Shown here: positions 4,378-18,488 of the stretch, one piece after another
How the letters are laid out: each line of letters opens with the position of its first letter
Numbering within the stretch: the stretch's first letter is position 1
Origin: Pseudorhodoferax soli
GTDB taxonomy: Bacteria; Pseudomonadota; Gammaproteobacteria; Burkholderiales; Burkholderiaceae_C
Reading direction: 5' to 3'
Assembly: GCF_003337555.1 (NCBI RefSeq)
Contig: NZ_QPJK01000001.1
Coordinates: 992,001-1,056,000 of the forward strand
DNA: 64,000 bases
The notes under the pieces: model-generated
The model's database searches: none
What the model was told of the DNA's origin: nothing
What the model saw: the letters and a program-made list of their open reading frames with translations, nothing else
Made by a program: the position numbers and the translations under genes

Positions 4378-4395
4378 ACCCTCATCGCCACGAAC

Positions 4396-4409
4396 TGAAA
4401 CCGGTTTCA
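4396..4409. promoter_or_regulatory. PtxS-type LacI operator upstream of the ABC/kgu operon
   Basis: A perfect 14-base palindrome, TGAAACCGGTTTCA, ending 11 bases before the GTG start at 4421. It has the central CG of LacI-family operators and is identical to the operator I recall for Pseudomonas PtxS, the 2-ketogluconate-responsive repressor. The last gene of the operon it precedes (9735) encodes a LacI-family protein, so autoregulation is likely. A TATAAA at 4374-4379 could be the -10 element, which would put the operator just downstream of the transcription start. Confidence 0.8.
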
Positions 4410-4420
4410 CAATTCGGCGC

Positions 4421-5092
4421 GTGAACTATCAATTCCAGTTCGACGCTGTCCTTGCCGCCTGGCCCCTGTTGCTCAAGGGCAGCTGGATCACCGTGCAGCT
4501 CTCGCTCACGGCCACGGTGCTGGGCCTCATCGTCGCGGTGCTGTGCGCCTGGGGCAAGACCGGCGGGCCCACGTGGCTGCGCTTCGTGATCCAGGCCTAC
4601 ATCGAGCTGATCCGCAACACGCCGTTCCTGGTGCAGTTGTTCTTCTTCTTCTTCGCGCTGCCTGTGTTCGGGCTGCGCTGGTCGCCCTACCAGGCCGCGC
4701 TGACGGCCATGGTCGTGAACCTGGGCGCCTACGCCACCGAGATCATCCGCGCCGGCATCGAATCCATCCCCAAGGGCCAGGTCGAGGCTGGGCGCGCACT
4801 GAACCTGAAGGGCTGGGAGATCTTCCGCTTCGTGATCCTCAAGCCCGCGCTCAAGGCCATCTACCCCGCGCTGACCAGCCAGTTCATCCTGCTCATGCTG
4901 ACCTCGGCCGTGGTCTCGGTGATCTCCGCGGACGACCTGACATCGGTGGCCGCCACGCTGCAGTCGCAGACCTTCCGCAGCTTCGAGATCTACATCGTGG
5001 TGACGGCCATCTACCTGGGCCTGGCCCTCGCGTTCGCAGCGCTGTTCAAGCTCGTGCACCGCCAGTTCCTCAACTACCCGGACAAGAGGTAA
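4421..5092 (+). CDS. Polar amino acid-type ABC transporter permease
   Basis: 223 residues from the GTG at 4421, chosen because it follows the operator and the protein then begins (MNYQFQFDAVL) as HisM/GltJ-type permeases do; the open frame extends upstream only into the cyclase gene. Hydrophobic helices span the length, and the EAA-type coupling loop (ESIPKGQVEAGRALNLKGWE) contacts the ATPase. It is the first gene of an operon with a second permease, binding protein, ATPase, kinase and reductase. The sugar-acid enzymes suggest the importer carries 2-ketogluconate or a related acid, although the family usually handles amino acids. Confidence 0.88.
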   Translation: MNYQFQFDAVLAAWPLLLKGSWITVQLSLTATVLGLIVAVLCAWGKTGGPTWLRFVIQAYIELIRNTPFLVQLFFFFFALPVFGLRWSPYQAALTAMVVNLGAYATEIIRAGIESIPKGQVEAGRALNLKGWEIFRFVILKPALKAIYPALTSQFILLMLTSAVVSVISADDLTSVAATLQSQTFRSFEIYIVVTAIYLGLALAFAALFKLVHRQFLNYPDKR

Positions 5093-5176
5093 CGATGCCC
5101 CCACGCTCATCGCTTCGCGTATCGCTGCCCCCCGAGGGGGCGCGTCAATGCCTTCGGGCGGCCGGGCGGCACTGAC
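5093..5176 (+). repeat. GC-rich intergenic repeat unit, copy 1
   Basis: The 84 bases between the two permease genes contain a hairpin, GCCCCC-cga-GGGGGC with its outer bases at 5127 and 5141, followed by a 21-base block at 5150-5170. The same block occurs exactly in inverted orientation at 8713-8733. I recall very similar units scattered between genes in Comamonadaceae, but no search was possible. Confidence 0.55.
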
Positions 5177-5830
5177 ATGAGAACCTTCGGCTGGCCCGAA
5201 TTCCTGTTCATCGTCGAGGCGGCGAAGTGGACGCTGGCGCTCTCGGCCATCGCCTTCGTCGGCGGCGCCATCCTGGGCCTGCTGGTGGCCCTGGCGCGCA
5301 CCAGCGAGCACCGCGGCGCGCAGTTCCTGGCCACCGGCTTCATCCAGGTGTTCCAGGGCACGCCGCTCTTGCTGCAGCTGTTCCTGATCTTCTTCGGCTT
5401 CCCCGTGCTGGGGCTGGACATCAACCCCTGGGTGGCGGCCGGCATCGCGCTGACCTTGAACACGGCCGCCTTCCTGGCCGAGATCTGGCGCGGCTGCATC
5501 CAGGCCGTGCCGGGCGGCCAGCGCGAGGCGGCGCTGGCACTCAACCTCTCGTATGTGGACCGCATGCGCGACGTGATCCTGCCGCAGGCCTTCAAGATTG
5601 CGCTGCCGCCCACTGTGGGCTACCTCGTGCAGGTGATCAAGGGCACCTCGCTGGCGGCCATCATCGGCTTCGCGGAGATCACGCGCGCCGGCCAGATCAT
5701 CAACAACGCCACCTTCCAGCCGCTGCACGTGTTCAGCACCGTGGCCGCCATCTACTTCGTCATCTGCTGGCCGCTGTCGCTGCTCGCTGCGCGCATGGAA
5801 AAGCGCCGCGCCGCCGCACTGAGCCGTTGA
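5177..5830 (+). CDS. Polar amino acid-type ABC transporter permease
   Basis: 217 residues, the second membrane subunit of the importer that starts at 4421. Membrane helices are clear (for example AIAFVGGAILGLLVALA), and the coupling loop IQAVPGGQREAALALNLS is of the EAA type. The two permeases probably form a heterodimer. The 84-base gap before it holds a repeat unit, unusual inside an otherwise tight operon. Its stop is followed 28 bases later by the binding-protein gene, which has a strong AAGGAGA ribosome site. Confidence 0.9.
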   Translation: MRTFGWPEFLFIVEAAKWTLALSAIAFVGGAILGLLVALARTSEHRGAQFLATGFIQVFQGTPLLLQLFLIFFGFPVLGLDINPWVAAGIALTLNTAAFLAEIWRGCIQAVPGGQREAALALNLSYVDRMRDVILPQAFKIALPPTVGYLVQVIKGTSLAAIIGFAEITRAGQIINNATFQPLHVFSTVAAIYFVICWPLSLLAARMEKRRAAALSR

Positions 5831-5858
5831 TCTTTCGTTCACCCAAGGAGACCCACGC

Positions 5859-6635
5859 ATGACCACCACCCGCCGCGCCGCTCTGGCGCTGACCCTGGCC
5901 GCAGCCTTTGCCCTGCCCGCTGCCGCGCAGACCGTCGCCGACATCAAGAAAAAAGGCGAGATCACCATCGGCATGCTGGTCGACTTCCCGCCCTACGGCA
6001 CGACCAACGCGCAGAACCAGCCTGACGGCTACGACGCCGACGTGGCCAGGCTCCTGGCCAAGGACCTCGGCGTGAAGGCCAACATCGTCCCGGTCACGGG
6101 CCCGAACCGCATCCCCTTCCTGCTGACCAACAAGGTCGACGTGCTGGTGGCCTCGCTGGCCGTCACGCCGGAGCGCGCCAAGCAGGTCGACTTCTCCACG
6201 CCCTACGCCGCCGCCACCATCGTGCTGTACGGCGCGGCCAAGGTGCAGTTGAAGGAGCCGGCGGACCTCAAGGGCAAGCGCGTGGGCGTGGCCCGCGCCA
6301 GCACGCAGGACGTGGCCCTCACCGCCATCGCGCCCGAAGGCACGGAGATCCGCCGCTTCGACGACGACGCCTCGGCCATGCAGGCGCTGATGTCGGGCCA
6401 GGTCGATGCCATCGGCTGCTCCACCACCGTGGCCGCGCAGATCGCCAAGCGCGCACCGGCCGGCACTTACGAAAACAAGTTCAACCTGCGCCAGCAGGTC
6501 ATGGGCGTGGCCATGCGCCCCGGCCAGGCCGAGCTCAAGAAGACGCTGGACGAGTTCGTGGACCGCAACAAGAAGAACGGCGAGTTGAACAAGCTCTACC
6601 AGAAGTGGCTGGGGACGGATTTCCCGGCACTGTGA
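5859..6635 (+). CDS. ABC transporter periplasmic binding protein (SBP family 3)
   Basis: 258 residues with an N-terminal signal peptide (RRAALALTLAAAFALPAAAQ, cleavage near residue 24) and a two-lobed family-3 binding fold: KKGEITIGMLVDFPPYG at the start, GYDADVARLLAKDL, and DLKGKRVGVARAST in lobe two. It captures the substrate in the periplasm and hands it to the permeases at 4421 and 5177. The family normally binds polar amino acids, but the operon context and the PtxS-type operator suggest a ketoaldonate ligand. A large fold-back region follows the stop codon. Confidence 0.88.
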   Translation: MTTTRRAALALTLAAAFALPAAAQTVADIKKKGEITIGMLVDFPPYGTTNAQNQPDGYDADVARLLAKDLGVKANIVPVTGPNRIPFLLTNKVDVLVASLAVTPERAKQVDFSTPYAAATIVLYGAAKVQLKEPADLKGKRVGVARASTQDVALTAIAPEGTEIRRFDDDASAMQALMSGQVDAIGCSTTVAAQIAKRAPAGTYENKFNLRQQVMGVAMRPGQAELKKTLDEFVDRNKKNGELNKLYQKWLGTDFPAL

Positions 6636-6685
6636 AAACGCGGGCATGACGGTGGTGCGGGACCGCGCCGACGGTGTACTCCACT

Positions 6686-6917
6686 CCGCGAATGTCCCCC
6701 GGCCTTGCCCGCCTTGCCGGCCTGGGGCCGGCAAGGCGGGCAAGGCCTCCTCCTTTATTTCGCTGCGTGGAGCACACCATCGTCGTGGTCTGTCAGCGTC
6801 GCGTCGCACGGCTCCGCACGACGCGACGTTGCCAGGGCCGAGGGTACTGGGTGGCCCCTGCAGCGAAATAAAGGAGGAGCCTGGGCCGCCTGCGGCCCTG
6901 GCGGGGGACATTCGCGG
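6686..6917. repeat. Large fold-back element with nested hairpins inside the operon
   Basis: Outer arms at 6686-6766 and 6860-6917 match as imperfect reverse complements: CCGCGAATGTCCCCC at one end pairs with GGGGGACATTCGCGG at the other, and the CTCCTCCTTTATTTCGCTGC block pairs with GCAGCGAAATAAAGGAGGAG. Inside the left arm is a perfect 21-base-pair hairpin (6701-6721 with 6727-6747, 5-base loop). A further hairpin, CGTCGCGTCG/CGACGCGACG, lies at 6797-6806 and 6819-6828. No transposase frame is present. It could be a miniature mobile element, a REP-like unit or an mRNA stability element between the binding-protein and ATPase genes. Confidence 0.75.
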
Positions 6918-6989
6918 AAGGGGCCACCCGGTGGCCTCGGCCCCCGCACCACGCATCCGCCTCTCGCGCCACAAACCAGACGAGCCAAC

Positions 6990-7760
6990 GTGAACACCAA
7001 CCAGCAACACACCCTCGGCGCTCCCATCATCGAGATGGCCGGCGTCAACAAGTGGTACGGCCAGTTCCAGGTGCTGACCGGCATCGACCTGTCGGTGCGC
7101 GCCGGCGAGCGCATCGTGGTCTGTGGCCCCTCGGGCTCGGGCAAGTCCACGTTGATCCGCTGCATCAACCGGCTCGAGACCGTGCAGCAGGGCAAGATCA
7201 CCGTGGACGGCATCGAGCTGACTGCGGGCGGCAAGAACGTGGACCGCGTGCGGGCCGAGGTCGGCATGGTGTTCCAGCAGTTCAACCTGTTTCCGCACCT
7301 GACCATCCTTCAGAACTGCACGCTGGCGCCGATGCGCTCGCGCGGCATGACGCAGGCGCAGGCCGAAGAGGTGGCCATGCAGTACTTGACGCGCGTGCGC
7401 ATCCCCGAGCAGGCCAAGAAGTACCCGGCGCAGTTGTCGGGCGGCCAGCAGCAACGCGTGGCGATTGCACGTGCGCTGTGCATGGCGCCCAAGATCATGC
7501 TGTTCGACGAGCCGACCTCGGCACTCGACCCCGAGATGGTCAAGGAAGTGCTGGACACCATGATCGGCCTGGCCGAGGACGGCATGACCATGCTGTGCGT
7601 CACGCACGAGATGGGCTTTGCGCGCAGCGTGGCCGACCGGGTGATCTTCATGGCCGACGGCAGGATCATCGAGCAGGCGCCGCCGCAGCAGTTCTTCGAG
7701 CATCCGCAGCACGAGAAGACACGCCAGTTCCTCGGCCAGATTTTGAGTTCCCACGCATGA
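6990..7760 (+). CDS. Polar amino acid-type ABC transporter ATPase
   Basis: 256 residues from the GTG at 6990; the frame is open further upstream only across the fold-back element, which is not protein-like. Walker [10 protein letters not shown], the signature LSGGQQQR, Walker B IMLFDEP followed by TSALDPE, and the switch His in CVTHEMGF are all present. It powers the importer whose permeases and binding protein lie upstream, from which it is separated by 354 bases of fold-back sequence. Its stop codon overlaps the start of the kinase gene (ATGA), so the two are translationally coupled. Confidence 0.9.
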
Positions 7761-8710
7761 ACGACACCACCACCTTCGACGTCGCCGTGTTCGGCGAAGC
7801 CATGATGCTGCTGGTGGCCGACCAGCCCGGCCCGCTCGAGGACTGCACCGGCTTTCTCAAGCGCACGGCCGGCGCCGAGACCAACTTCGCCATCGGCCTG
7901 GCGCGCCTCGGGTTCAAGGTCGGCTGGGCCAGCCGCCTGGGCACCGACAGCATGGGCCGCTACCTGCTGCGCAGCATGCAGGCCGAGGGCATCGATTGCG
8001 GCCACGTGGTCGTCGATGCGGCGCAGAAGACGGGCTTCCAGTTCAAGGGCCGCGTGACGGACGGCAGCGACCCGCCGGTCGAATACCACCGCAAGGGCTC
8101 GGCCGCGAGCCAGATGGCGCCCAGCGACATCGACGAGGCCTGGCTGCGCGGCGCGCGCCACCTGCATGCCACGGGCGTGTTTCCGGCCATCTCGGCCACC
8201 ACGCTGCCCACCGCCGTGCGCAGCATGGAGATCGCGCGCGCCGCCGGCCGCACGATTTCCTTCGACACCAACCTGCGGCCCACGCTGTGGCCCAGCCGCG
8301 AAGCCATGGTGCAGTCCATCAACGGCTTGGCGGCCCGCGCCGACTGGGTGCTGCCCGGCATCGAGGAAGGCGAGATCCTGACCGGCGAGACGGCGCCCGA
8401 ACGCGTGGCCGCGTTCTACCGCGCGCAGGGTGCCAAGCTGGTCGTCGTGAAACTCGGCGCCGATGGCGCCTACTACGACAGCGATGTTGCCGGCACCGGC
8501 CGCGTGCCGGGCTTCCCCGTCGAGAAGGTCGTCGACACCGTGGGTGCGGGCGACGGCTTCGCAGCCGGCGTGGTCAGCGCGCTGCTCGAAGGGCTGAGCG
8601 TGCCCGAGGCCGTGCGCCGCGGATCGTGGATCGGCGCCCGCTGCGTGCAGGTGATCGGCGACACCGAGGGCCTGCCCACGCGTGCGCAGCTTGAGGAGGC
8701 TGCGCTGTGA
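7757..8710 (+). CDS. kguK: 2-ketogluconate kinase-like PfkB sugar kinase
   Basis: 317 residues. The PfkB fold shows the N-terminal sugar-binding motif ([19 protein letters not shown]) and the C-terminal signature [12 protein letters not shown] near residue 260, whose Asp is the catalytic base. The sequence matches what I recall of Pseudomonas KguK closely, including the ending [12 protein letters not shown]. KguK phosphorylates 2-keto-D-gluconate to 2-keto-6-phosphogluconate; 2-keto-3-deoxygluconate kinase (KdgK) is the main alternative. The gene overlaps the ATPase upstream (ATGA) and the reductase downstream (GTGA). The reductase and PtxS-type operator favour KguK, but a dual role is possible because ManD and DgoD products lie nearby. 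Confidence 0.75.
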
Positions 8711-9738
8711 GCGCCGCCCGGCCGCCCGAAGGCGCTCGCATCGCAGGCGAAGCCGTAGGCACTCCCAAGCACGTCGTCGTCTTCGGCGCCCTGCCGCCCG
8801 ACCAGCTGGCGCGCCTGCAGGCCGCCCACCAGGTCACCGTCACCAACCCCAAGGCCGACCCCGCTGCGTTCGAGGCCGCCCTGGCGCAGGCAGAAGGCCT
8901 GATCGGCGCGAGCTACCCGATCACACCCGCGCTGCTCGACAAGGCCCCGCGCCTGCGCGTGGTCTCCAGCGTCTCCGTCGGCGTGGACAACTACCCGCTG
9001 GCCGCACTGCAGCAGCGCGGCATCGTGCTGTGCCACACGCCCGGCGTGCTCGACGAGACTGTGGCCGACACCGTGTTCGGCCTGCTCATGGCCACCAGCC
9101 GGCGCATGGTCGAGCTGGCCAACCTGGTGCGCGAAGGCCGCTGGGCCAAGAGCGTGGGCGAAGACCTGTACGGCTGGGACGTGCACCACAAGACCATCGG
9201 CCTGCTGGGCTTCGGCCGCATCGGCCAGGCGATTGCGCGCCGCGCCGCGCTGGGCTTCGGCATGCAGGTGCTCTACCACGCGCGCCGGCCGGTCGACCTG
9301 GCCACGCAGGCACCTGAACTCGTGGGCAAGGCCACGCACACGCCGCTGGCCGAACTGCTGCCGCGCGCCGATTTCGTGGTGGCCATGCTGCCGCTGTCGG
9401 ACACCACGCGCGGCATGCTGAACGCCGAGCTGTTCGCGCAGATGAAACCCGGCAGCATCTTCATCAATGGCGGCCGCGGCGCCACGGTCGACGAGGCCGC
9501 GCTGCTGCACGCGCTCGACCATGGCCCGCTGCGCGCGGCCGGCCTGGACGTGTTCGCCAAGGAGCCGCTGCCCACAGCCTCCCCGCTGCGCACGCATCCG
9601 CGCGTGACCCCCTTGCCGCACATCGGCTCCGCCACGGCCGAAACGCGCCATGCCATGGCAGCGCTGGCCGTGACCAACCTGCTGCAGGTGCTGGCCGGCG
9701 AGCAAGCCACGGCCGCCTACGACACCGCTGCCGCGTGA
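8707..9738 (+). CDS. kguD: 2-ketogluconate reductase-like D-isomer 2-hydroxyacid dehydrogenase
   Basis: 343 residues from the GTG at 8707, which overlaps the kinase stop. NAD(P)-binding motif LGFGRIGQAIA lies in the middle, the catalytic Arg is in NGGRGATVDE, and His is in LPHIGSATAETR. It resembles GhrB/KguD enzymes, which reduce 2-ketogluconate or its 6-phosphate to (phospho)gluconate. The first 20 or so residues are not family-like: bases 8713-8733 are an inverted copy of the intergenic repeat at 5150. No later ATG or GTG restores a shorter start before the conserved HVVVFG strand, so the repeat appears to supply the N-terminus. Confidence 0.75.
   Translation: MSAARPPEGARIAGEAVGTPKHVVVFGALPPDQLARLQAAHQVTVTNPKADPAAFEAALAQAEGLIGASYPITPALLDKAPRLRVVSSVSVGVDNYPLAALQQRGIVLCHTPGVLDETVADTVFGLLMATSRRMVELANLVREGRWAKSVGEDLYGWDVHHKTIGLLGFGRIGQAIARRAALGFGMQVLYHARRPVDLATQAPELVGKATHTPLAELLPRADFVVAMLPLSDTTRGMLNAELFAQMKPGSIFINGGRGATVDEAALLHALDHGPLRAAGLDVFAKEPLPTASPLRTHPRVTPLPHIGSATAETRHAMAALAVTNLLQVLAGEQATAAYDTAAA
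8713..8733 (-). repeat. Inverted copy of the 5150-5170 repeat inside kguD
   Basis: Twenty-one bases exactly complementary to 5150-5170. Here the block encodes residues near the start of the reductase (AARPPEGA). The downstream bases to about 8760 are also unlike the family, so this copy seems to have become part of the coding sequence and to provide its start region. Confidence 0.7.
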
Positions 9739-10754
9739 GCACCGCACGGCCCACGATCTCCGACGTGGCCACGGTGGCCGGGGTCTCCAAGGCCACCGTC
9801 TCGCGCTTCTTCAACCACCGCGAACGGCTGCTGAGCCCCGACATCGCCGCGCGGGTGCAGGCCGCCATCGACCAGCTCGGCTACGCACCCAGCCCCATGG
9901 CCCAGGCGCTGAGCCGGGGCCGCTCGCGCCTGATCGGCCTGGTCGTGGCCGACATCGCGAACCCCTACTCTGTGGCCGTGCTGCGCGGCGCCGAGCGCGC
10001 CTGCCGCGAGGCCGGCTACCTGGTCATGCTGTTCAACCTGGGCAACGAGCCGGGCCGCGAGCGCGAGGCCATCGAGGCCTTGGCCGGCTACCAGGTCGAT
10101 GGCTTCATCCTCAACACCCTGGGCCGCGGCCACAGCGTGCCTGACGCCGTGGCGGCCCAGGGCAAGCCCGTGGTGCTGATCGACCGGCGCCATGCCGGCA
10201 TGCAGACCGACTTCGTGGCGCTGGACAACGCCGGCGCCATGGCGCAGCTCTGTGGCCACCTGCAGGACGGAGGCTGGCAGGAACTGCTCTACGTGACCGA
10301 ACCCGTGGCCGGCGTCAGCACGCGGCGCGAGCGCTCGGCCGCCTTCGCCAGCTGCGTGCAGGCGCCCATGGCCGGCAGCGTGTTCGAAAGCGCCGAGGGC
10401 GCCGATGCCGCGCTCGTGGCGGCCCTGGTCGCGCTGCGCCGGCGCGCCGGCAAGAAGCGCCGCCCTGCCGTGCTGGCCGGCAATGCCGTGGTCACGCTGC
10501 GCGTGGCCCATGCCGTGCGCGAACTCGGCTGGGAGTTCGGCAGCGACCTGGGCTTTGCGGGCTTCGACGATCCCGATTGGGCCTCGCTGATCGGCCCGGG
10601 CCTCACCTGCATCGCCCAGCCGACCGATGCCATCGGCGAAGGCGCGGCGCACTGCCTGATCGAGCGGCTGCAGGGCCACACGGGCCCGGCGCGGCGCGTG
10701 CTGCTGCAAGGGCAGCTGGTGGTGCGCGGCTCGTCGGCCGCCTCAGCGCGCTGA
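9735..10754 (+). CDS. ptxS: LacI-family repressor, PtxS-like
   Basis: 339 residues from the GTG at 9735, overlapping the reductase stop. The N-terminal helix-turn-helix ISDVATVAGVSKATVSRFFN and hinge helix SPMAQALSRGRS are typical of LacI proteins, followed by a periplasmic-binding-like effector domain. As the last gene of a kguK/kguD operon preceded by TGAAACCGGTTTCA it fits PtxS, which releases that operator when it binds 2-ketogluconate. A second such site at 12728 suggests it also controls the idnO operon. The specific effector is inferred from context. Confidence 0.8.
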   Translation: MSTARPTISDVATVAGVSKATVSRFFNHRERLLSPDIAARVQAAIDQLGYAPSPMAQALSRGRSRLIGLVVADIANPYSVAVLRGAERACREAGYLVMLFNLGNEPGREREAIEALAGYQVDGFILNTLGRGHSVPDAVAAQGKPVVLIDRRHAGMQTDFVALDNAGAMAQLCGHLQDGGWQELLYVTEPVAGVSTRRERSAAFASCVQAPMAGSVFESAEGADAALVAALVALRRRAGKKRRPAVLAGNAVVTLRVAHAVRELGWEFGSDLGFAGFDDPDWASLIGPGLTCIAQPTDAIGEGAAHCLIERLQGHTGPARRVLLQGQLVVRGSSAASAR

Positions 10755-10760
10755 GGCGGC
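10737..10760. terminator. 24-base perfect palindrome at the ptxS/dgoD convergent junction
   Basis: The palindrome runs from the last codons of ptxS into the 17-base gap before the dgoD stop codon. It would form a strong GC-rich stem on either strand, placed exactly where two convergent operons meet. There is no T-run, so if it terminates transcription it probably does so by blocking convergent read-through or with Rho. Confidence 0.55.
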
Positions 10761-10771
10761 GCCGGGGCGCA

Positions 10772-11920
10772 TCACCACTCCGCCACGCTGCCGTCGGCGT
10801 GCCGCCACTGCGGGTTGTGCCAGTCCGGCGGATGGCGCGCGGCGTGCCGCACGCGCTCCTCGTCGATCTCCACGCCGAGCCCGGGCTTGTCCCAGGCCTC
10901 GATGTGGCCATCGCGGACCGCGAAGTCGGCCTTGTTGACCACGTAGTCCAGCAGTTCGGCACCCTGGTTGTAGTGGATGCCCATGCTCTGCTCCTGCAGA
11001 ACGGCGTTGTAGGCGACGAAGTCCAGTTGCAGGCAGGCGGCCAGCGCGATCGGGCCCAGCGGGCAATGCGGCGCGAGCGCCACGTCGTAGGCCTCGGCCA
11101 TGGCGGCGATCTTGTGGCATTCGGTGATGCCGCCGGCATGCGAGAGGTCGGGCTGCAGGATGGCGATGCCGCCACGCTGCAGCACCTGCTTGAACTCCTG
11201 GCGCGTGTACATGCGCTCGCCGGCCGCCAGCGGGATGCTGGTGGCGGCCGCGAGCACCGGGTAGTGCTCGGCCTGCTCGGCCAGCACCGGCTCCTCGACG
11301 AACAGCGGGCGCAAGGGCTCCAGCGCGCGCAACAAGGGTTTGGCCATGGGCAGCGCCACCCGGCCATGGAAGTCCAGGCCGAAGTCCACCTCGGTGCCGA
11401 AGGCGTCGCGCACCTGCGCCGGCACGCTGACCGCGCGGTCGATCGCGCGCACCGAGTCGAGCATGCGCATGGCCTCGCAGCCGTTCAGCTTGAAGGTGTC
11501 GAAGCCGCCGGCGCGCAGCCGGTGGATCTGCTCCACCACGTCGGCCGGCCGGTCGCCACCGACCCAGCTGTAGACCTGGATGCGGTCGCGGACACGCCCG
11601 CCCAGCAGCTGATGCACGGGCGCGCCCAGCGCCTTGCCCTTGATGTCCCACAGCGCCTGGTCGATGCCGGCGATGGCGCTCATGAGGATGGCGCCGCCGC
11701 GGTAGAAATGCGTGCGCACCATGCTCTGCCAGTGGTCGTTGATGCGCATCGGATCGCAGCCGACGAGCGTGGCACCCAGTTCGTGCACGGCCGCCTCGAC
11801 GGTGCGGGCGCGGCCTTCGACCACGGGTTCGCCCCAGCCCGCGATGCCCTCGTCCGTCTCGATCTTGAGGAACAGCCAGCGCGGCGCGACATGGTAGGTG
11901 TGCAGCGCGCGGATCTTCAT
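10772..11920 (-). CDS. dgoD: D-galactonate dehydratase-like enolase-superfamily enzyme
   Basis: 382 residues, the length I know for E. coli DgoD. The N-terminal capping domain ([11 protein letters not shown]) and barrel motifs agree: metal ligands in [14 protein letters not shown] and AAGERMYTR, with the general base His in [11 protein letters not shown]. It should dehydrate D-galactonate, or a close epimer, to 2-keto-3-deoxygalactonate. It overlaps the GntR regulator upstream by four bases and both are transcribed leftwards. No dgoK or dgoA homologue lies in the window, so the product must be handled by the neighbouring kinase or by genes elsewhere. Confidence 0.82.
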
Positions 11921-12675
11921 CGGGCGGCCCTCCGCGCTGCCGTGGCGCGCCGCCCGCGTTGCAGCGGCAGCAGCTCCTCCATGTCGCGCTGCGCGGAATC
12001 GATCAGCGTGATGGCGGCCTGCTCGCCGCCCGCGCCGTCGCCCCGCTCGATGGCCAGGCACACGGCCTCGTGCATGGCCAGCGAGGACGCCGGCCCGCCG
12101 GGCTTTTGCGACACGATCTCGAATGCCGCCTTGAGCATGGCCGACATGGCCTCCAGCATCTGGCGCAGGTACTGGTTGCCACAGGCCGCCAGGATGGTGG
12201 TGTGGAAGGCGAGATCGGCCTCGACATAGTCGCCCTTGCCGGCCACGGCCCGCACCATGGCCATGTAGGCCGCGCGCAGCGCCCGGCGCTCCTCGGCGCT
12301 GGCGCGCTGCGCCGCCAGGCGCACGGCCGGCGGCTCGATGATGCGGCGCAGTTCCATCAGGTCGCGCGCCATGCTGGCGTCGAAATCGGCCGAGGCGGCA
12401 CGCCAGGCAATCACGCCGGGGTCGAACAGGTTCCAGCGCTGCGGCTCCAGCACCAGCGTGCCGATGCGCCGGTTCACCTCCAGCATGCCTTTGGCCACCA
12501 GCGACTTGATGGCCTCGCGGATCACGATGCGGCTGTAGCCGAAGCGCTCGCACAGCTCCGGTTCGGAAGGCAGTAACGCGCCCGGCGGGTAGCGGCCGTT
12601 GCAGATGTCCTGGCCCAGCTGGGCCAGGACCAGTTCATGGAATGTGGTGGCGCGGGGGCGGGGCAAGGTTGTCAT
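11917..12675 (-). CDS. dgoR: FadR-subfamily GntR regulator, DgoR-like
   Basis: 252 residues. N-terminal winged helix ([20 protein letters not shown], then [15 protein letters not shown]) and C-terminal FCD effector domain with metal-ligand residues (DLAFHTTI, then MHEAV). Its overlap with dgoD indicates it regulates that dehydratase. The divergent gap to idnO carries a 12-base palindrome TCATACGTATGA just upstream of its start, probably its own operator. The effector is likely a galactonate-type acid by analogy with DgoR; this is inferred. Confidence 0.78.
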
Positions 12676-12688
12676 GTCTGGGCGTTGA

Positions 12689-12700
12689 TCATACGTATGA
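12689..12700. promoter_or_regulatory. Palindrome TCATACGTATGA, candidate GntR/DgoR operator
   Basis: A perfect 12-base palindrome 14 bases upstream of the GntR start at 12675, in the divergent promoter region. FadR-type regulators bind short palindromes like this. A half-site GTCATAC recurs at 12764-12770 near the idnO promoter, so the regulator might act on both sides. Confidence 0.6.
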
Positions 12701-12727
12701 CATCGCCATCGGCAAGCTGTAAGAGCG

Positions 12728-12741
12728 TGAAACCGGTTTCG
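12728..12741. promoter_or_regulatory. Second PtxS-type operator, upstream of idnO
   Basis: TGAAACCGGTTTCG, differing from the site at 4396 only in the last base and keeping the perfect 12-base core GAAACCGGTTTC. It lies in the divergent region between the GntR gene and idnO, 49 bases before the idnO start, upstream of a TATAAA at 12774-12779. It implies the LacI-family protein at 9735 controls this operon too. Confidence 0.75.
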
Positions 12742-12789
12742 GGTTTATCCCGATCCGCCAAACGTCATACCTCTATAAATTGCCGGTGG

Positions 12790-13569
12790 ATGAACACCAC
12801 CGCCCCCCGCAGCCCCTTCGACCTGTCCGGCCGCAGCGCCCTGATCACCGGTTCCACGCGCGGCATCGGCTACGCGCTGGCCCAGGGCCTGGGCCGCGCC
12901 GGCGCCCACATCGTCGTCAACGGCCGCCAGCAGCCGGCCGTCGATGCAGCCGTCGCCGGCCTCTCGGCCGAGGGCATCTCCGCCAGCGGCGCGGTGTTCG
13001 ACGTGGCCGATGAAGCCGGCGTCGCCGCCGCCTTCGCGCAGTTCGACGCCGAGGGCCGGCAGATCGACATCGTGGTCAACAACGCGGGCATCCAGCACCG
13101 CCAGCCCATGCTGGAGCTGCCGCTCGCCGACTGGCAGCGCGTGATCGACACCAACCTGACGGCGGCCTTTCTGGTCGGCCGCGAGGCGGCGCGCCGCATG
13201 GTGCCGCGCAAGGCCGGCAAGATCATCAACATCGGCTCGCTGACCAGCGCGGCCGCACGCGCCACGGTGGCGCCGTACACCGTGGCCAAGGCCGGCATCA
13301 AGCTGCTGTCCAAGGCGATGGCGGCCGAATGGGCGCAGCACAACATCCAGGCCAACAGCATCGGCCCCGGCTACATCCTGACCGACATGAACCAGGCGCT
13401 GGTCGACAACCCCGACTTCGACGCCTGGGTCAAGGCCAGCAACCCCACCAAGCGCTGGGGCCGGCCGGACGAGCTGGCCGGCACCGCCGTGTACCTGGCG
13501 TCCAGCGCTTCGGACTATGTGAACGGCCAGATCATCTACGTCGACGGCGGCTGGCTGTCCGTGCTGTGA
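12790..13569 (+). CDS. idnO: Gluconate 5-dehydrogenase-like SDR
   Basis: 259 residues from the ATG at 12790. Classical SDR: TGSTRGIGYALA for NAD(P), NNAG, catalytic Ser in NIGSLTS and YTVAK, and C-terminal DGGWLSVL. The sequence follows E. coli IdnO closely (NNAGIQHRQP, ERKAGK-like PRKAGKIINI, ASDYVNGQ). It should interconvert 5-keto-D-gluconate and D-gluconate. It leads a rightward operon with ManD, a hydroxyacid dehydrogenase, TRAP genes and an IdnD-like dehydrogenase, so L-idonate or ketogluconate is the likely substrate stream. Confidence 0.82.
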   Translation: MNTTAPRSPFDLSGRSALITGSTRGIGYALAQGLGRAGAHIVVNGRQQPAVDAAVAGLSAEGISASGAVFDVADEAGVAAAFAQFDAEGRQIDIVVNNAGIQHRQPMLELPLADWQRVIDTNLTAAFLVGREAARRMVPRKAGKIINIGSLTSAAARATVAPYTVAKAGIKLLSKAMAAEWAQHNIQANSIGPGYILTDMNQALVDNPDFDAWVKASNPTKRWGRPDELAGTAVYLASSASDYVNGQIIYVDGGWLSVL

Positions 13570-13582
13570 GGGTGCTCTGAAG

Positions 13583-14830
13583 ATGGCCACGCGCATCACC
13601 GGCGTCCGCGCCATCGCCACGGCGCCGCAGGGCATCAACCTGCTGGTCGTCCGCGTCGACACCGACCAGCCCGGCCTGTACGGCCTGGGCTGCGCCACCT
13701 TCGCCTACCGCCACCTGGCCGTGCAATGCGTGGTCGAGCAGTACCTGAAGCCCCTGCTGCTCGGCCGCGACGCCGAGGCGATCGAGGAGATCTGGCAGCT
13801 CATGCACCAGAACGCCTACTGGCGCAACGGCCCGATCGAGAACAACGCCATGTCGGGCGTGGACATGGCCTTGTGGGACCTGAAGGGCAAGCTCGCCGGC
13901 ATGCCGCTGTACCAGCTGCTGGGGGGCAAGGTGCGCCAGGGCGTGCCGGTCTACCGCCACGCCGAGGGAAGGGACCTTGCCGCGCTGTGCGACGACGTGG
14001 CGCGCCTGCAGGCGCTCGGCATCCGGCACATCCGCTGCCAGAGCGGCGGCTACGGCGGCGGCGCCTTCGGCCCAGCGCCGGCGCAGGCCGCCGAAGGCGC
14101 GGCCGAGGGCATCTACCTGGAGCCGCGCCGCTACATGCGCGACACCGTGGCGCTGTTCGACGCGCTGCGCGCCAAGCTCGGCTTCGACGTGGAGCTGTGC
14201 CACGACGTGCACGAGCGCCTGCGCCCGGCCGATGCCGTGCGGTTGGCGCAGCAGCTCGAGCCCCACCAGCTGTTCTTCCTCGAAGACGCGATCCCGCTCG
14301 AGGAAGGCGACTGGCTGCGCCGGCTGCGCGCACAGACCAGCACGCCGCTGGCCCAGGGCGAGCTGTTCAACCACCCGTTCGAGTGGCGCACGCTGATCGC
14401 CGAGCGGCTGATCGACTTCATCCGCGTGCACCCGAGCCAGCTGGGCGGCATCACGCCCACGCGCAAGCTGCAGGTCTTCGCCGAGCAGTACGGCGTGCGC
14501 ACCGCCTGGCACGGGCCGGGTGACCAGTCGCCGCTGGGCCACGCCGCCAACATCCACCTGGACCTGGCGGCGCGCAACTTCGGCATCCAGGAGTGGTCGG
14601 GCACGGAGCCGCCCAACTTCGTGATCCAGGAGCTCAGCGGCTCGGGCAGCGCGTTGCAGGGCGTGTTCCCCGGCCTGCCGGAATGCCGCAACGGCTTCGT
14701 CTACGCGAACGACCTACCCGGCCTGGGTGTGGACCTCGACGAAGCCGAAGCCGCCAAGTACCCGGCCACCGCCGGCGTCACGACCTGGACGCAGACGCGT
14801 TTGCTCGACGGCAGCCTGGCGCTGCCCTGA
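13583..14830 (+). CDS. ManD-family mannonate/gluconate dehydratase
   Basis: 415 residues of the enolase superfamily. The metal-binding triad is visible in LCHDVHERL (Asp), FFLEDAIP (Glu) and AQGELFNHPFEW (Glu), with HGPGDQSPLGHAA near the end. These are marks of the ManD/RspA family, members of which dehydrate D-mannonate, D-gluconate or both to 2-keto-3-deoxygluconate. Placed 13 bases after idnO, which makes gluconate, gluconate dehydration is the natural guess. Activity cannot be assigned to one acid from sequence, since many ManD proteins are poor catalysts. Confidence 0.82.
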   Translation: MATRITGVRAIATAPQGINLLVVRVDTDQPGLYGLGCATFAYRHLAVQCVVEQYLKPLLLGRDAEAIEEIWQLMHQNAYWRNGPIENNAMSGVDMALWDLKGKLAGMPLYQLLGGKVRQGVPVYRHAEGRDLAALCDDVARLQALGIRHIRCQSGGYGGGAFGPAPAQAAEGAAEGIYLEPRRYMRDTVALFDALRAKLGFDVELCHDVHERLRPADAVRLAQQLEPHQLFFLEDAIPLEEGDWLRRLRAQTSTPLAQGELFNHPFEWRTLIAERLIDFIRVHPSQLGGITPTRKLQVFAEQYGVRTAWHGPGDQSPLGHAANIHLDLAARNFGIQEWSGTEPPNFVIQELSGSGSALQGVFPGLPECRNGFVYANDLPGLGVDLDEAEAAKYPATAGVTTWTQTRLLDGSLALP

Positions 14831-14846: not shown

Positions 14847-15812
14847 ATGAAGATCGTGTTCCACGGCCAGAACGCCGGCGGCTTCCGCGAGGGCTTCGAC
14901 GCGCTCATCGGCCCCGGCCATGAGATCGTCCACGTCAGCGACACGCTGGCCGCGCCCGGCGAGGCCGCGCACTTCGCCAGTGCCGACGTGCTGATCGGCA
15001 CCAGGCTCGACGCCAGCCTGCCCAGCCCCGCCGCCGCGCGCCTGTACCACGCGCCGGCCGCCGGCACCGACATGATCGACCGCACGCGCCTGCCCGCCCA
15101 GACCGCGCTGTGCAACTGCCACGGCCACGAGCACGCGATCGCCGAGTACGTGTTCGCCGCGCTGCTGGAGCGCCATGTGCCGCTGGCCCGCGCCGATGCC
15201 GACCTGCGCCGCGGCGAGTGGACCTACTGGGCCGGCCGCCCGGGCGCGCTGCGCACCGAACTGGGCAGCCAGACCATCGGCCTGCTGGGGTTCGGCCACA
15301 TCGCCCAGGCCATCGCGCACCGCGCACGCGCCTTCGGCATGCGCGTGCATGCGGCCAACCGCAGCCCGCTGGCGGCCGATGCCGTGGACCGCGCTTTCGG
15401 CCTGCCCGAGTTGCATGCCTTCCTGGCCAGCGTCGACATCGCCGTCGTCACGCTGCCGCTGACGCCCGAGACCACCGGCATCGTCGACGCCGCCGCCATC
15501 GCCGCCATGCGCCCCGGCAGCGTGCTCGTGAACGTGGCGCGCGGTCCGGTGGTGGACGAGCAGGCGCTGTACGACGCACTCAAGGGCCGCCACCTGGGCC
15601 ACGCCGTGATCGACACCTGGTACCAGTACCCCACCGCCACGCAGCCGCAGTGCCAGCCCTCGCGCCTGCCCTTCGCGGAACTCGACAACCTGCGCATGGC
15701 GCCGCACATGTCGGGCTGGACCGACGGCACGGTGCGCCGGCGCCAGCAGACCATGGCCGACAACATCGCGCGCCTGGCGGCCGGACAAGACCTCGTGAAC
15801 CGACTCGTGTAA
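14847..15812 (+). CDS. D-isomer specific 2-hydroxyacid dehydrogenase
   Basis: 321 residues. Coenzyme motif LLGFGHIAQAIA, catalytic Arg in NVARGPVVDE and His in MAPHMSGWTDG. It belongs to the phosphoglycerate/glyoxylate reductase superfamily but is shorter and clearly different from the KguD-like protein at 8707. It probably reduces a 2-keto acid generated from the imported sugar acid, or oxidises the reverse. The gene lies between the ManD dehydratase and the first TRAP receptor of the same operon. The exact substrate is unknown. Confidence 0.82.
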   Translation: MKIVFHGQNAGGFREGFDALIGPGHEIVHVSDTLAAPGEAAHFASADVLIGTRLDASLPSPAAARLYHAPAAGTDMIDRTRLPAQTALCNCHGHEHAIAEYVFAALLERHVPLARADADLRRGEWTYWAGRPGALRTELGSQTIGLLGFGHIAQAIAHRARAFGMRVHAANRSPLAADAVDRAFGLPELHAFLASVDIAVVTLPLTPETTGIVDAAAIAAMRPGSVLVNVARGPVVDEQALYDALKGRHLGHAVIDTWYQYPTATQPQCQPSRLPFAELDNLRMAPHMSGWTDGTVRRRQQTMADNIARLAAGQDLVNRLV

Positions 15813-15839: not shown

Positions 15840-16823
15840 ATGCAGAAGAAGATCGTCCGACTCGTCCTGGCCTGCGTGGCCGCCGCCTGCCTGCCGGCCG
15901 GCGCCCTGGCAGCCAAGTACAACCTGAAGCTGGGCCATGCGGTCAATACCACCGACGGCCAGCACGCAGCCGCCGTGAAGATGGCCGAACTGGTGAAGCA
16001 GCGCAGCAACGGCGAGGTGGAGATCACGGTCTTCCCGTCGAGCACGCTGGGCACGGACGCCGCCATGATCAGCGGCGCGCGCGGCGGCGCCATCGACATC
16101 GTCTCCAGCGGGGCTTCCAACTACAACGGCATCGTGCCGGCCACGGCCGCCTTCGAGCTGCCCTTCGTGTTCCGCAACGCGCAGCATGCCTATGCCGTGC
16201 TGGACGGCCCCATCGGCACCAAGGTGCTCGACGACTTCGGCGCGCAGCGCCTGAAGGGCCTGGCCTACTGGGAGAACGGCTGGCGCGCCTTCACCAACGG
16301 CAAGCGCCCGGTCCGCACGCCCGAAGATCTGAAGGGCCTGAAGATCCGCTCCACGCCCAACCCGTACCACATCCAGGCCTTCAAGCTGCTGGGCATGAAC
16401 CCCTCGCCGCTGGCCATCGCCGAGCTGTACTCGGCCCTGGAGACCGGTGCCTTCGACGCGCAGGAACACCCGATCAACGTCACGCTGTCCAACAAGTTCT
16501 ACGAGGTGCAGAAATACCTCACGGTCAGCAACCACATCTACTCGCCGCTGATCCTGGTCATGAACAAGGCCAGGTTCGACAGCCTGCCGCCCGAGTACCA
16601 GAACGTCGTCGTCGAAGCCGCGCGGGAGGCCTCGCGCTACCAGCGCGAACTCAATGCGAGCAACGCCGGCAAGTGGGTCGACGAACTGCGCAAGGCCGGC
16701 ATGCAGGTGGTCGACAAGGTCGACATGGCGCCGTTCCAGAAGATCGTCTCCGAGCCCATCGCCAGGACCTTCTCCGAGAAGCTCGGCCCCGACCTGCTCA
16801 AGGCCATCGAGAACACGCAATAG
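15840..16823 (+). CDS. TRAP transporter receptor DctP, copy 1
   Basis: 327 residues with signal peptide (RLVLACVAAACLPAGALA). The DctP fold is recognisable: KLGHAVNTTDGQHAAAVKMA at the start, LKGLKIRSTPNP with the conserved Arg that pairs with the substrate carboxylate, and SNHIYSPLILVMNK. It delivers an organic or sugar acid to the DctQM pair downstream. It is one of three receptors in this operon and is less like the other two than they are to each other. A terminator-like hairpin follows it. Confidence 0.88.
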   Translation: MQKKIVRLVLACVAAACLPAGALAAKYNLKLGHAVNTTDGQHAAAVKMAELVKQRSNGEVEITVFPSSTLGTDAAMISGARGGAIDIVSSGASNYNGIVPATAAFELPFVFRNAQHAYAVLDGPIGTKVLDDFGAQRLKGLAYWENGWRAFTNGKRPVRTPEDLKGLKIRSTPNPYHIQAFKLLGMNPSPLAIAELYSALETGAFDAQEHPINVTLSNKFYEVQKYLTVSNHIYSPLILVMNKARFDSLPPEYQNVVVEAAREASRYQRELNASNAGKWVDELRKAGMQVVDKVDMAPFQKIVSEPIARTFSEKLGPDLLKAIENTQ

Positions 16824-16831
16824 CCCCCCGG

Positions 16832-16863
16832 GCGCGCCGGCCCGTGCGGCGCGCTGTTTTCTT
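16832..16863 (+). terminator. Terminator-like hairpin between two TRAP receptor genes
   Basis: An 8-base-pair GC stem, GCGCGCCG (16832-16839) with CGGCGCGC (16847-16854), and a 7-base loop, followed by TGTTTTCTT. It looks like an intrinsic terminator but lies inside the TRAP operon, nine bases past the stop of the first receptor. It may attenuate transcription so that the first receptor is made in excess of downstream genes. Confidence 0.6.
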
Positions 16864-16885
16864 CCAACCCGACATCGGAGACCAC

Positions 16886-17899
16886 ATGTCGTTCCTGCCC
16901 ACCACCACCCGCCGCTCCGTGCTGGCCCTGGCCACTGCCTGCGCACTGGCCATGCCCGCCATGGCCGAGATCAAGGCCCGCATCGGCCACGCCATGCCGG
17001 AGAGCCATCCCCAGGCCGTGGCCATGAACAAGTTCTGCGAGCTGGCCTCCACCTACACCAAGGGCAACGTCAAGATCCAGGCCTACCACAGCGCCGTGCT
17101 GGGCAGCGACGAGAAGCAGCTGCAGGCCGTGCAGTCCGGCACGCAGGACCTGTACATCGGCACGCTGGCGCCGCTGTCCACCCGCGTGAAGGAAGTGCAG
17201 GTCTGGGACCTGCCCTTCCTGTTCCGCGACCAGCGCGAGGTCTACGCCGTGCTCGATGGCGCCTCGTCGAAGAAGATCTTCGAGAAGATCGCACCGGCCG
17301 GACTGGTCGGCCTGACCTGGACCGGCATGGGCTTTCGCAACCTGTCCAACAGCAAGCGCAGCGTCAACGCGGTGGAGGACGTGAGCGGCCTGAAGATCCG
17401 CGTGATGACCAACCCCGTGGCGCTGGACACCTGGAAGTCCATTGGCGCCAACGCCACGCCGATGGCCTTTGCCGAGGTCTTCCCGGCCCTGGAGATCAAG
17501 GCACTGGACGGCCAGGAGAACCCGCTGCAGCACATGTATGCCAACAAGATGCAGGAGGTGCAGAAGTTCATCACCGTGACCAACCACGTCTACACGCCGG
17601 TGGCCATGGTGGCATCGAAGAAGTTCTGGGACAGCCTGTCGGCCGACGACAAGGCCGGCGTGCAGAAGGCCGCCACCGAGGCCGGCCTGTACCAGCGCAA
17701 GCTGCTGGACGATGGCGATGTCGAGGTCATCGCCAAGTTCAAGGCCGCCGGCGTGACCGTCAACACCATGAGCGCAGCCGAGCTCGTGCGCGTGCAGGAC
17801 AAGGTCAAACCCGTGGTGGCCAAGTTCGCACCGCAGATCGGCGATGACTTCGTGAAGGGCTTCATGGCCGAGATCGAAGCCGTCCGCGCCGCCAAGTAA
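16886..17899 (+). CDS. TRAP transporter receptor DctP, copy 2
   Basis: 337 residues with signal peptide (VLALATACALAMPAMA). DctP features include RIGHAMPESHPQAVAMNKFC, SGTQDLYIGTLAPLS, VSGLKIRVMTNPVAL with the carboxylate-binding Arg, and TVTNHVYTPVAM. It is clearly paralogous to the receptor at 20856 (shared GTQDLY, ALEIKALDG, NKM, EVQK patterns). Seven bases separate it from dctQ, so it is probably the primary receptor for this transporter. Confidence 0.9.
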   Translation: MSFLPTTTRRSVLALATACALAMPAMAEIKARIGHAMPESHPQAVAMNKFCELASTYTKGNVKIQAYHSAVLGSDEKQLQAVQSGTQDLYIGTLAPLSTRVKEVQVWDLPFLFRDQREVYAVLDGASSKKIFEKIAPAGLVGLTWTGMGFRNLSNSKRSVNAVEDVSGLKIRVMTNPVALDTWKSIGANATPMAFAEVFPALEIKALDGQENPLQHMYANKMQEVQKFITVTNHVYTPVAMVASKKFWDSLSADDKAGVQKAATEAGLYQRKLLDDGDVEVIAKFKAAGVTVNTMSAAELVRVQDKVKPVVAKFAPQIGDDFVKGFMAEIEAVRAAK

Positions 17900-17906
17900 G
17901 CGCGCC

Positions 17907-18488
17907 ATGGGGAAGGTCTTCAAGGCGGCGGCCGATGGGCTGACGCGCGGGCTCGAAGTGCTCATGGTGGCCTGCATGGTCGTCATGCTGGTCATGGTGT
18001 TCGGCAACGTGGTGCTGCGGCTGTTCCTGAACACCGGCATCGACCTCTCGGAGGAGGTGCCGCGTTTTGCCTTCGTCTGGTTGACCTTCCTGGGCGCCAT
18101 CGTGGGCATGCGCAAGCGTGCCCACCTGGGCGTGGACCTGGTCGTGCAGCTGCTGCCCGCGTTCGGGCGACGCGTGTGCTGGGGCATCAGCCAGGCCATC
18201 ATGCTGGTGTGCTGCGGCTACATCGTCTACGGCACCTGGCTGCAGCACGACATCATCGCGGGCAACGCCTCGCCGGTGGCGCAGTGGAGCATGCTGTGGG
18301 TGTACGGCGTGAGCTACCTCACGGGTGGGGCCATCGGCCTGATCTGCCTGTCCAACCTGGTGCGGCTGTTCGCCGGCCAGGTGGCCGACGACGAGCTCAT
18401 CGACGTGCACGAAGAAGGCATGGACGAGGCACTGGAGGCCGAGCACGAGATGAAGGCGCAGGGCGCCGCACCCGGGGGCCGCGCATGA
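17907..18488 (+). CDS. TRAP transporter small membrane subunit DctQ
   Basis: 193 residues with four hydrophobic helices (for example VLMVACMVVMLVMVFGNVVL and QAIMLVCCGYIVYG) and the DctQ signature EEVPRFAFVWLTFLGA. DctQ chaperones or links the large subunit and the receptor. An acidic C-terminal tail of about 35 residues extends past the last helix. Its stop overlaps the dctM start (ATGA), indicating coupled translation. Confidence 0.9.
   Translation: MGKVFKAAADGLTRGLEVLMVACMVVMLVMVFGNVVLRLFLNTGIDLSEEVPRFAFVWLTFLGAIVGMRKRAHLGVDLVVQLLPAFGRRVCWGISQAIMLVCCGYIVYGTWLQHDIIAGNASPVAQWSMLWVYGVSYLTGGAIGLICLSNLVRLFAGQVADDELIDVHEEGMDEALEAEHEMKAQGAAPGGRA

What the first reader, a model, noticed from the sequence alone, without database searches (positions are those of the whole stretch)
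4396..12741. Two PtxS-type operators define a two-operon ketoaldonate regulon
TGAAACCGGTTTCA at 4396-4409 and TGAAACCGGTTTCG at 12728-12741 precede two different operons, and a LacI-family gene ends the first. The palindrome equals the PtxS operator I recall from Pseudomonas. This would extend PtxS-like control from 2-ketogluconate genes to an idonate/gluconate TRAP operon in a betaproteobacterium.
Basis: partly seen in the sequence, partly recalled or inferred. Interest (0 to 1): 0.75.

Follow-up and report, generated by a model that had tools for sequence, protein, structure and literature searches.

The report
Ketogluconate repressor with two target operons
A bacterium related to Pseudorhodoferax carries a 2-ketogluconate sensor-repressor whose DNA docking sequence occurs only twice in the genome, once before its own uptake operon and once, unusually, before a neighbouring sugar-acid operon, so the two probably switch together.

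Summary
TGAAACCGGTTTCA (4396-4409) and TGAAACCGGTTTCG (12728-12741) are present, and their 12-bp core GAAACCGGTTTC occurs nowhere else in the 8.16-Mb genome (0.08-0.18 copies expected by chance). The LacI gene (9735-10754) groups with the PtxS of a kgu cluster, apart from the 16 own-genome LacI paralogues tested. Its operon encodes KguK- and KguD-like enzymes plus an amino-acid-type ABC transporter instead of the MFS carrier KguT. Site 1 is exact in 63 of 68 orthologous loci and has 1-2 mismatches in the other 5. That half is a conserved PtxS/kgu operon.

Site 2 lies midway between a FadR/GntR-type regulator gene and a sugar-acid operon (dehydrogenases, dehydratase, TRAP transporter). It is in 2 of 6 genomes with that gntR-sdr pair, both of this genus, and absent from 4, of which 2 have the LacI. 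All 6 keep boxes that look like GntR's own. I read site 2 as a real but lineage-restricted operator added to an operon chiefly run by its GntR. Binding, direction of control and effector were not tested. PtxS control of a second operon (gad) is already known in Pseudomonas; the new elements are the target operon and the transporter.

The parts
4396..4409 (.). Site 1, PtxS operator TGAAACCGGTTTCA, upstream of the ABC/kgu operon; about +11 to +24 if the TATAAA at 4373-4378 is the -10 (inferred)
   Evidence: exact in 63 of 68 orthologous loci, 1-2 mismatches in the other 5
4421..5092 (+). ABC permease, polar-amino-acid type (GlnP/EhuC-like), GTG start
5177..5830 (+). second ABC permease, same type
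5859..6635 (+). ABC solute-binding protein, amino-acid-type family (below curated cut-offs)
6990..7760 (+). ABC ATPase (GlnQ-like)
7757..8710 (+). PfkB-family sugar kinase, KguK-like (53% to the Enterobacter kgu-cluster kinase); best NCBIfam model is KDG/KDGal kinase, below cut-off
   Evidence: the other two own-genome matches at E 1e-15 are 33% identical
8707..9738 (+). 2-hydroxyacid dehydrogenase, KguD/GhrB-like (50% to Enterobacter KguD)
9735..10754 (+). LacI-family regulator, PtxS clade
10772..11920 (-). galactonate dehydratase (DgoD), over NCBIfam cut-off; overlaps the end of gntR (probably one transcript)
11917..12675 (-). FadR/GntR-family regulator, divergent to sdr
12688..12701 (.). 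putative GntR-type operator ATCATACGTATGAC overlapping the putative gntR -10
   Evidence: GTATGAC in 5 of 6 gntR-sdr intergenic regions read, GTTTGAC in G253 (by eye)
12728..12741 (.). Site 2, TGAAACCGGTTTCG, midway between the gntR and sdr starts
   Evidence: 14 of 14 identical in the relative G253 against 28 of 57 aligned columns to the left and 36 of 48 to the right
12764..12779 (+). second GntR-type box (GTCATACC) and the putative sdr -10 TATAAA (12774-12779) beside it
   Evidence: TCATAC in 6 of 6 (by eye); promoter scan
12790..13569 (+). SDR, gluconate 5-dehydrogenase-like (below the cut-offs of the models shown)
13583..14830 (+). enolase-superfamily dehydratase, ManD-like (below cut-off)
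14847..15812 (+). D-2-hydroxyacid dehydrogenase
15840..19765 (+). TRAP transporter: DctP 15840-16823, DctP 16886-17899, DctQ 17907-18488, DctM 18485-19765
19797..20834 (+). L-idonate 5-dehydrogenase-like enzyme (below cut-off)
20856..21872 (+). third DctP solute-binding protein; best PDB match 7bbr

Best explanation
The 9735 gene encodes PtxS. Without 2-ketogluconate it binds site 1 near the start of transcription of its own ABC/kguK/kguD/ptxS operon and represses it; 2-ketogluconate releases it. In this genus the same protein also binds site 2, halfway between gntR and sdr, adding a 2-ketogluconate-dependent input to a divergent sugar-acid operon (GntR-DgoD / SDR-ManD-like-2HDH-TRAP-IdnD) whose primary switch is its own GntR acting on boxes at both promoters. 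Shown here: the sites, their rarity, conservation of site 1, PtxS-clade identity of the LacI, presence of site 2 in one further species. Taken from published Pseudomonas work: operator sequence, 2-ketogluconate as effector, repression by overlap with the transcription start. Inferred: binding at site 2, the promoter positions, GntR's role, and the direction of control at site 2. Site 2 centres about 52 nt upstream of the putative sdr start, so it could repress (against GntR or RNA polymerase) or help activation.
For: Exact core only twice in 8.16 Mb, 8.3 kb apart. The PtxS beside kguE-kguK-MFS-kguD in Enterobacter has the window LacI as its best match among this genome's LacI proteins (241 bits; next 145) and joins it in a 100/100 clade without any of 16 own paralogues. 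kguK 53% and kguD 50% to that cluster. Site 1 exact upstream of permA in 63 of 68 orthologous loci, and one perfect palindrome upstream of permA in each of the 6 genus genomes. A motif from 80 sites in the orthologous loci scores site 1 at 30.3 and site 2 at 22.6; the next-best stretch of the window scores -0.3, and the 8 one-mismatch loci scored (of 10 such genome sites) reach 7-14. The site-2 letters, on the other strand, are one of a pair of sites before permA in L118. Site 2 is intact in G253/Leaf267 although the gntR half of the intergenic region has diverged. It sits 62-49 nt before the sdr ATG, within the 140-30 bp zone holding over 75% of LacI-family sites (PMC4052901, passage).
Against: No binding or expression data. 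Site 2 is absent from 4 of 6 gntR-sdr loci; two of those genomes (G022, G052) have the LacI. In the 15-17-kb stretches around the ManD-like gene of the 11 genomes other than the window and G253, no palindrome with up to 2 mismatches was found, though 4 of these genomes (G300, G022, G052, G303) have the LacI. TGAAACCGGTTTCG by itself is a background 14-mer: of 11 such loci fetched from the family scan, 1 lies in this operon and 10 elsewhere. Site 2 is not at the putative transcription start, unlike the published PtxS sites. The conserved block between the two species continues to the right of site 2, and they may share it by plain descent.
Confidence: 0.7

Rival explanations
1. Only site 1 is functional. 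Operon 2 is run by its GntR alone, and site 2 is a chance or relic match carried along by descent in two related species.
For: GntR-type boxes on the sdr side in 6 of 6 gntR-sdr loci and on the gntR side in 5 of 6 plus a one-base variant, site 2 in only 2 of 6. The asymmetric 14-mer is usually unrelated to kgu genes (10 of 11 fetched loci).
Against: Expected core copies in the 115-bp intergenic region about 1e-6. Operator 14 of 14 identical between species while columns to its left are 28 of 57; but the conserved block continues to its right, so the operator is not conserved on its own.
Confidence: 0.22
2. Another LacI-family protein of the genome (17 other PF00356 matches) is the one that uses site 2, or both sites.
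For: LacI-family regulators share CG-centred palindromes (PMC4052901, passage), and the genome has 18 PF00356 matches.
Against: The 9735 gene is co-located with both sites, its orthologues keep the same operator in 63 of 68 loci, and the 16 paralogues tested fall outside its clade.
Confidence: 0.05
3. The palindrome serves GntR or RNA structure rather than a LacI protein.
For: It sits inside the gntR-sdr regulatory region.
Against: The 4 other gntR-sdr intergenic regions lack it but keep the GTATGAC/TCATAC boxes; no Rfam family reached its gathering score in the window.
Confidence: 0.03

Closest known systems
PtxS/kgu regulon of Pseudomonas (P. aeruginosa, P. putida, P. plecoglossicida)
   Same: LacI-family regulator beside kguK/kguD; identical 14-bp operator; the published kgu site at +5 to +18 and gad site at +10 to +23 (PMC5902321, passages) compare with about +11 to +24 inferred here for site 1; more than one target operon.
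   Different: ABC transporter instead of KguT; no kguE-like gene found in this genome (a query with no positive control); ptxS is the last gene of the operon; second target is a sugar-acid TRAP operon rather than gad; site 2 lies upstream of the putative start, not over it.
kgu cluster of Enterobacteriaceae (Enterobacter hormaechei NZ_CP077309, Klebsiella aerogenes LR134124)
   Same: ptxS-kguE-kguK-MFS-kguD; PtxS, KguK and KguD 40-54% identical to the window's.
   Different: The palindrome there is TGGAACCGGTTCCA (Enterobacter) or TGGAACCGGTACCA (Klebsiella); MFS carrier.
GntR-SDR-(MFS or TRAP)-enolase sugar-acid loci of Burkholderiales (named examples: Burkholderia pyrrocinia, Caballeronia grimmiae)
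   Same: FadR/GntR regulator (about 56% identical to the window's) next to an SDR and an enolase-family protein.
   Different: MFS carrier in these two records; in the window TRAP genes, idnD, dgoD and the added PtxS-type site.

Membership tests
PtxS (2-ketogluconate repressor) | LacI-family DNA-binding domain and clade membership | tested here: met
   PF00356 match; 100/100 clade with the PtxS of an Enterobacter kgu cluster (its Klebsiella counterpart is annotated PtxS), excluding 16 own paralogues.
PtxS (2-ketogluconate repressor) | operator TGAAACCGGTTTCA at the kgu promoter | tested here: met
   site 1 identical to the published operator; conserved in orthologues
PtxS (2-ketogluconate repressor) | gene linked to kguK and kguD | tested here: met
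   53% and 50% to the Enterobacter cluster
PtxS (2-ketogluconate repressor) | kguE and MFS carrier kguT in the operon, as in Pseudomonas | tested here: not met
   ABC genes occupy the transporter's place; no kguE-like match in the genome at E 0.001 (no positive control). The regulator's own features are still met; the operon is a variant.
PtxS (2-ketogluconate repressor) | 2-ketogluconate releases the protein from DNA | not testable with these tools
   needs EMSA or calorimetry
PtxS regulon member (operon 2) | operator-type site in the promoter region | tested here: met
PtxS regulon member (operon 2) | site conserved upstream of orthologous operons | tested here: inconclusive
   2 of 6 gntR-sdr loci, both in this genus
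FadR/GntR-regulated sugar-acid locus | divergent GntR gene and shared boxes on both sides of the intergenic region | tested here: met
   TCATAC on the sdr side in 6 of 6; GTATGAC on the gntR side in 5 of 6, GTTTGAC in the sixth (by eye)

The most novel reading that the evidence does not exclude
A PtxS operator has been added to a GntR-run sugar-acid operon that has no sugar kinase of its own. Related loci in two genomes (G197, G208) carry a KguK-like kinase inside the operon and show no match to this PtxS; in Pseudorhodoferax the operon sits beside the kgu operon, has no kinase, and shares its operator. The operon would borrow KguK from its neighbour, and the shared operator would keep the borrowed kinase and the borrowing pathway in step, with GntR and PtxS acting as a two-input switch.
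Probability: 0.2. Interest if true: 0.55.

Novelty: new variant of a known kind. Interest (0 to 1): 0.38.

Why it matters
It shows a small, traceable case of regulon growth: one regulator with exactly two exact core sites in an 8-Mb genome, one conserved through the Burkholderiales loci examined, one found in only two of the species examined. It also points to an amino-acid-type ABC transporter as the probable 2-ketogluconate carrier of many of these bacteria, a prediction that is easy to test. The regulatory principle itself is known from Pseudomonas.

Tried and rejected
Structured-RNA explanation: no Rfam family reaches its gathering score in the window. Other operators in the window: the best remaining stretch scores -0.3 against the 80-site motif. 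An alternative promoter that would put site 2 at a transcription start (-35 ATGACA 12697, spacer 15, -10 TGTAAG 12718; 9 of 12 positions) was weighed and set aside by reading the alignment by eye: the G253 sequence keeps a -35-like TTGACA but no matching -10. A kinase-for-kgu trade across genomes was examined and is only suggestive: G197 and G208 each hold a second KguK-like kinase elsewhere, and G395 has sdr-manD-dgoD-TRAP-idnD with neither a kinase match at E 1e-40 nor the LacI at E 1e-70.

Literature: the listings of searches (titles and abstract starts) showed no paper on PtxS control of an idonate or galactonate operon, nor on an ABC 2-ketogluconate carrier in Burkholderiales. Three listings were capped (15: 20 of 30; 26: 10 of 35; 65: 12 of 38), and only the held open-access library was searched. 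The main text of the large LacI-regulon study does not contain the word PtxS; its supplements were not seen.

Limits. Among the models shown, only DgoD, the DctP proteins, DctM and the permease domain pass curated NCBIfam cut-offs, so the substrates of SDR, ManD-like, idnD-like, kguK and kguD products are family-level guesses. The ORF picked for paralogue L028 was identical to that of L013, so L028 was dropped from the tree; L024 is the window gene itself. The family scan matched 40 of 299 genomes; I mapped the 30 loci of about 3 kb it fetched. In these, 17 of 19 perfect palindromes lie next to the ABC permease gene (own genome included); the other two (L039, L048) do not. The class scan matched 11 of 369 genomes, own included; apart from re-finding the site in 10 loci, their neighbourhoods were not studied. 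The backward-control counts were for up to one mismatch only. No structure prediction was run.
Full report
WHAT IS THERE. The two palindromes are at the stated places: TGAAACCGGTTTCA at 4396-4409 and TGAAACCGGTTTCG at 12728-12741. The shared 12-bp core is found exactly twice in the 8,162,227-base genome, both times in this window; 10 further sites have one mismatch, and the backward control pattern has 10 places with up to one mismatch. Expected exact copies genome-wide are 0.18 (base composition) or 0.08 (first-order Markov model of the window), and about 1e-6 for the 115-bp intergenic region holding site 2. The closest named genomes by the LacI protein are Pseudorhodoferax strains (94, 92, 93 and 85% identical) and one labelled Variovorax boronicumulans (93%).

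OPERON 1. Genes 4421-10754: two permeases, a solute-binding protein and an ATPase of the amino-acid-type ABC group, a PfkB-family kinase, a 2-hydroxyacid dehydrogenase and a LacI-family regulator. Against the ptxS-kguE-kguK-MFS-kguD cluster of Enterobacter hormaechei ([quoted passage not shown] The Enterobacter PtxS prefers the window LacI (241 bits) over the other LacI proteins of this genome (next 145 bits). A maximum-likelihood tree of 29 proteins puts the window LacI, 11 orthologues and that PtxS in a 100/100 clade without the 16 own paralogues included. No Pseudomonas PtxS sequence was obtained, so the link to Pseudomonas rests on the operator, the gene set and published work.

SITE 1. 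The published PtxS operator is the same 14 letters (PMC3402500, passages; PMC5902321, passages; PMC11678583, passages). Of 80 orthologous loci fetched from named contigs, 68 contain the first ABC gene with its upstream region: 63 have the exact palindrome there, 3 have copies with one mismatch and 2 with two; 12 loci show no such gene in the stretch held. The 11 orthologues in the tree include Comamonadaceae, Alcaligenaceae, Oxalobacteraceae, Burkholderiaceae and Sphaerotilaceae (labels). Each of the 6 genus genomes has one perfect palindrome, before permA. If the TATAAA at 4373-4378 is the -10 (inferred; its -35 is poor), site 1 lies at about +11 to +24, like the published +5 to +18 (kgu) and +10 to +23 (gad).

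SITE 2 AND OPERON 2. Site 2 lies between gntR (FadR/GntR family; followed by dgoD) and the operon sdr, ManD-like dehydratase, 2-hydroxyacid dehydrogenase, two DctP, DctQ, DctM, idnD-like, third DctP. In the family, 13 of 399 genomes hold the ManD-like gene at E 1e-100. Six of the 13, own genome included, show the gntR-sdr pair. By eye, TCATAC stands on the sdr side in 6 of 6 and GTATGAC on the gntR side in 5 of 6 (GTTTGAC in G253). In the window these boxes overlap or adjoin the putative -10 of each gene (TATGAT for gntR, TATAAA for sdr). This points to the GntR as the operon's own, older regulator (inference). Site 2 is in 2 of the 6: the window and G253, whose 230 bases there are identical to those of Pseudorhodoferax sp. 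Leaf267 (L063). The other four lack it, although two of them (G022, G052) have the LacI. More widely, none of the 11 other genomes with the ManD-like gene shows a palindrome with up to 2 mismatches in the 15-17 kb around that gene, though 4 of them (G300, G022, G052, G303) have the LacI. Between the window and G253 the operator is 14 of 14 identical; aligned columns, gaps counted, are 28 of 57 to its left and 36 of 48 to its right. The conserved block thus runs from the operator toward sdr, which suggests (inference) that it belongs to the sdr promoter; it also means the operator is not conserved on its own.

IS SITE 2 GOOD ENOUGH TO BIND? A motif from 80 sites in the orthologous loci scores site 1 at 30.3 and site 2 at 22.6 bits; the next best in the window is -0.3, and the 8 one-mismatch genome sites scored (of 10) reach 7-14. 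The changed base is at the outermost position, the most variable of the 14, and the same variant is one of a pair of sites before permA in L118 (1 of the 80). Against this, the variant 14-mer is seen without connection to kgu genes in 10 of 11 fetched loci of the family scan.

GENE ORDER. In L059-L062 lacI is followed by curA and ttt; in the window the dgoD-to-dctP3 block sits between lacI and curA; in L063/G253 the order is lacI, ttt, block, curA. In the other four genus genomes searched the best gntR matches are only 31-32% identical, so the gntR-containing block is absent there; one of them (G300) has a ManD-like gene in another setting. Whether the block was gained twice, or was ancestral and lost, is not resolved.

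A POSSIBLE REASON FOR COUPLING. Neither the window's block nor G253's shows a kinase. In G197 and G208 the block has a KguK-like kinase (54% and 53% to the window kguK; 57% and 54% to the Enterobacter KguK) and those genomes have no match to this LacI at E 1e-70. So the Pseudorhodoferax operon may rely on KguK next door; the other two matches to it in the genome at E 1e-15 are 33% identical. The evidence is thin: both comparison genomes also have a second such kinase elsewhere, G022 and G052 have the LacI and no kinase in the block but no site 2, and G395 fits neither pattern.

TRANSPORTER CLUES. The third DctP has PDB 7bbr as its best match and the second DctP has it second. That 7bbr is the sugar-acid protein CxaP of Advenella is my recollection; a review lists CxaP with xylonic, fuconic, galactonic and gluconic acid (PMC12076931, passage).

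VERDICT. Operon 1 is a well-supported betaproteobacterial PtxS/kgu operon with an unusual transporter class. Operon 2 as a PtxS target is likely but unproven, restricted in distribution, and probably secondary to its own GntR.

Noticed in passing
4421-7760: An amino-acid-type ABC transporter (GlnP/EhuC/GlnQ-like) holds the place of the MFS carrier KguT in this kgu operon; its first permease gene is also present in 68 of 80 orthologous loci. It is the probable 2-ketogluconate carrier.
   Followed up: partly
6636-6990: The gap between the solute-binding and ATPase genes inside operon 1 holds nested inverted repeats, among them a perfect 22-nt pair (6701-6722 / 6726-6747); it resembles an inserted repeat element. 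No further copy was found in the window or in the own-genome loci compared; the whole genome was not searched for it.
   Followed up: partly
12688-12779: GTATGAC/TCATAC boxes recur on both sides of the gntR-sdr intergenic region in the six genomes read (one base different on the gntR side of G253) and in the window overlap or adjoin the putative -10 elements of both genes: a likely operator pair for the FadR/GntR regulator.
   Followed up: partly
L115, L117, L118, L122: In these loci, where lacI lies upstream of the ABC genes, the region before permA carries two imperfect palindromes whose starts are 20-23 bp apart, and a further site precedes lacI.
   Followed up: no
L186 and L187 (Klebsiella, Enterobacter): The palindrome after ptxS there is TGGAACCGGT(A/T)CCA, differing at position 3 from the TGAAACC half-site, and in the Enterobacter protein the recognition-helix region reads GKTS where the window LacI has SKAT: a possible specificity pair (by eye).
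   Followed up: no
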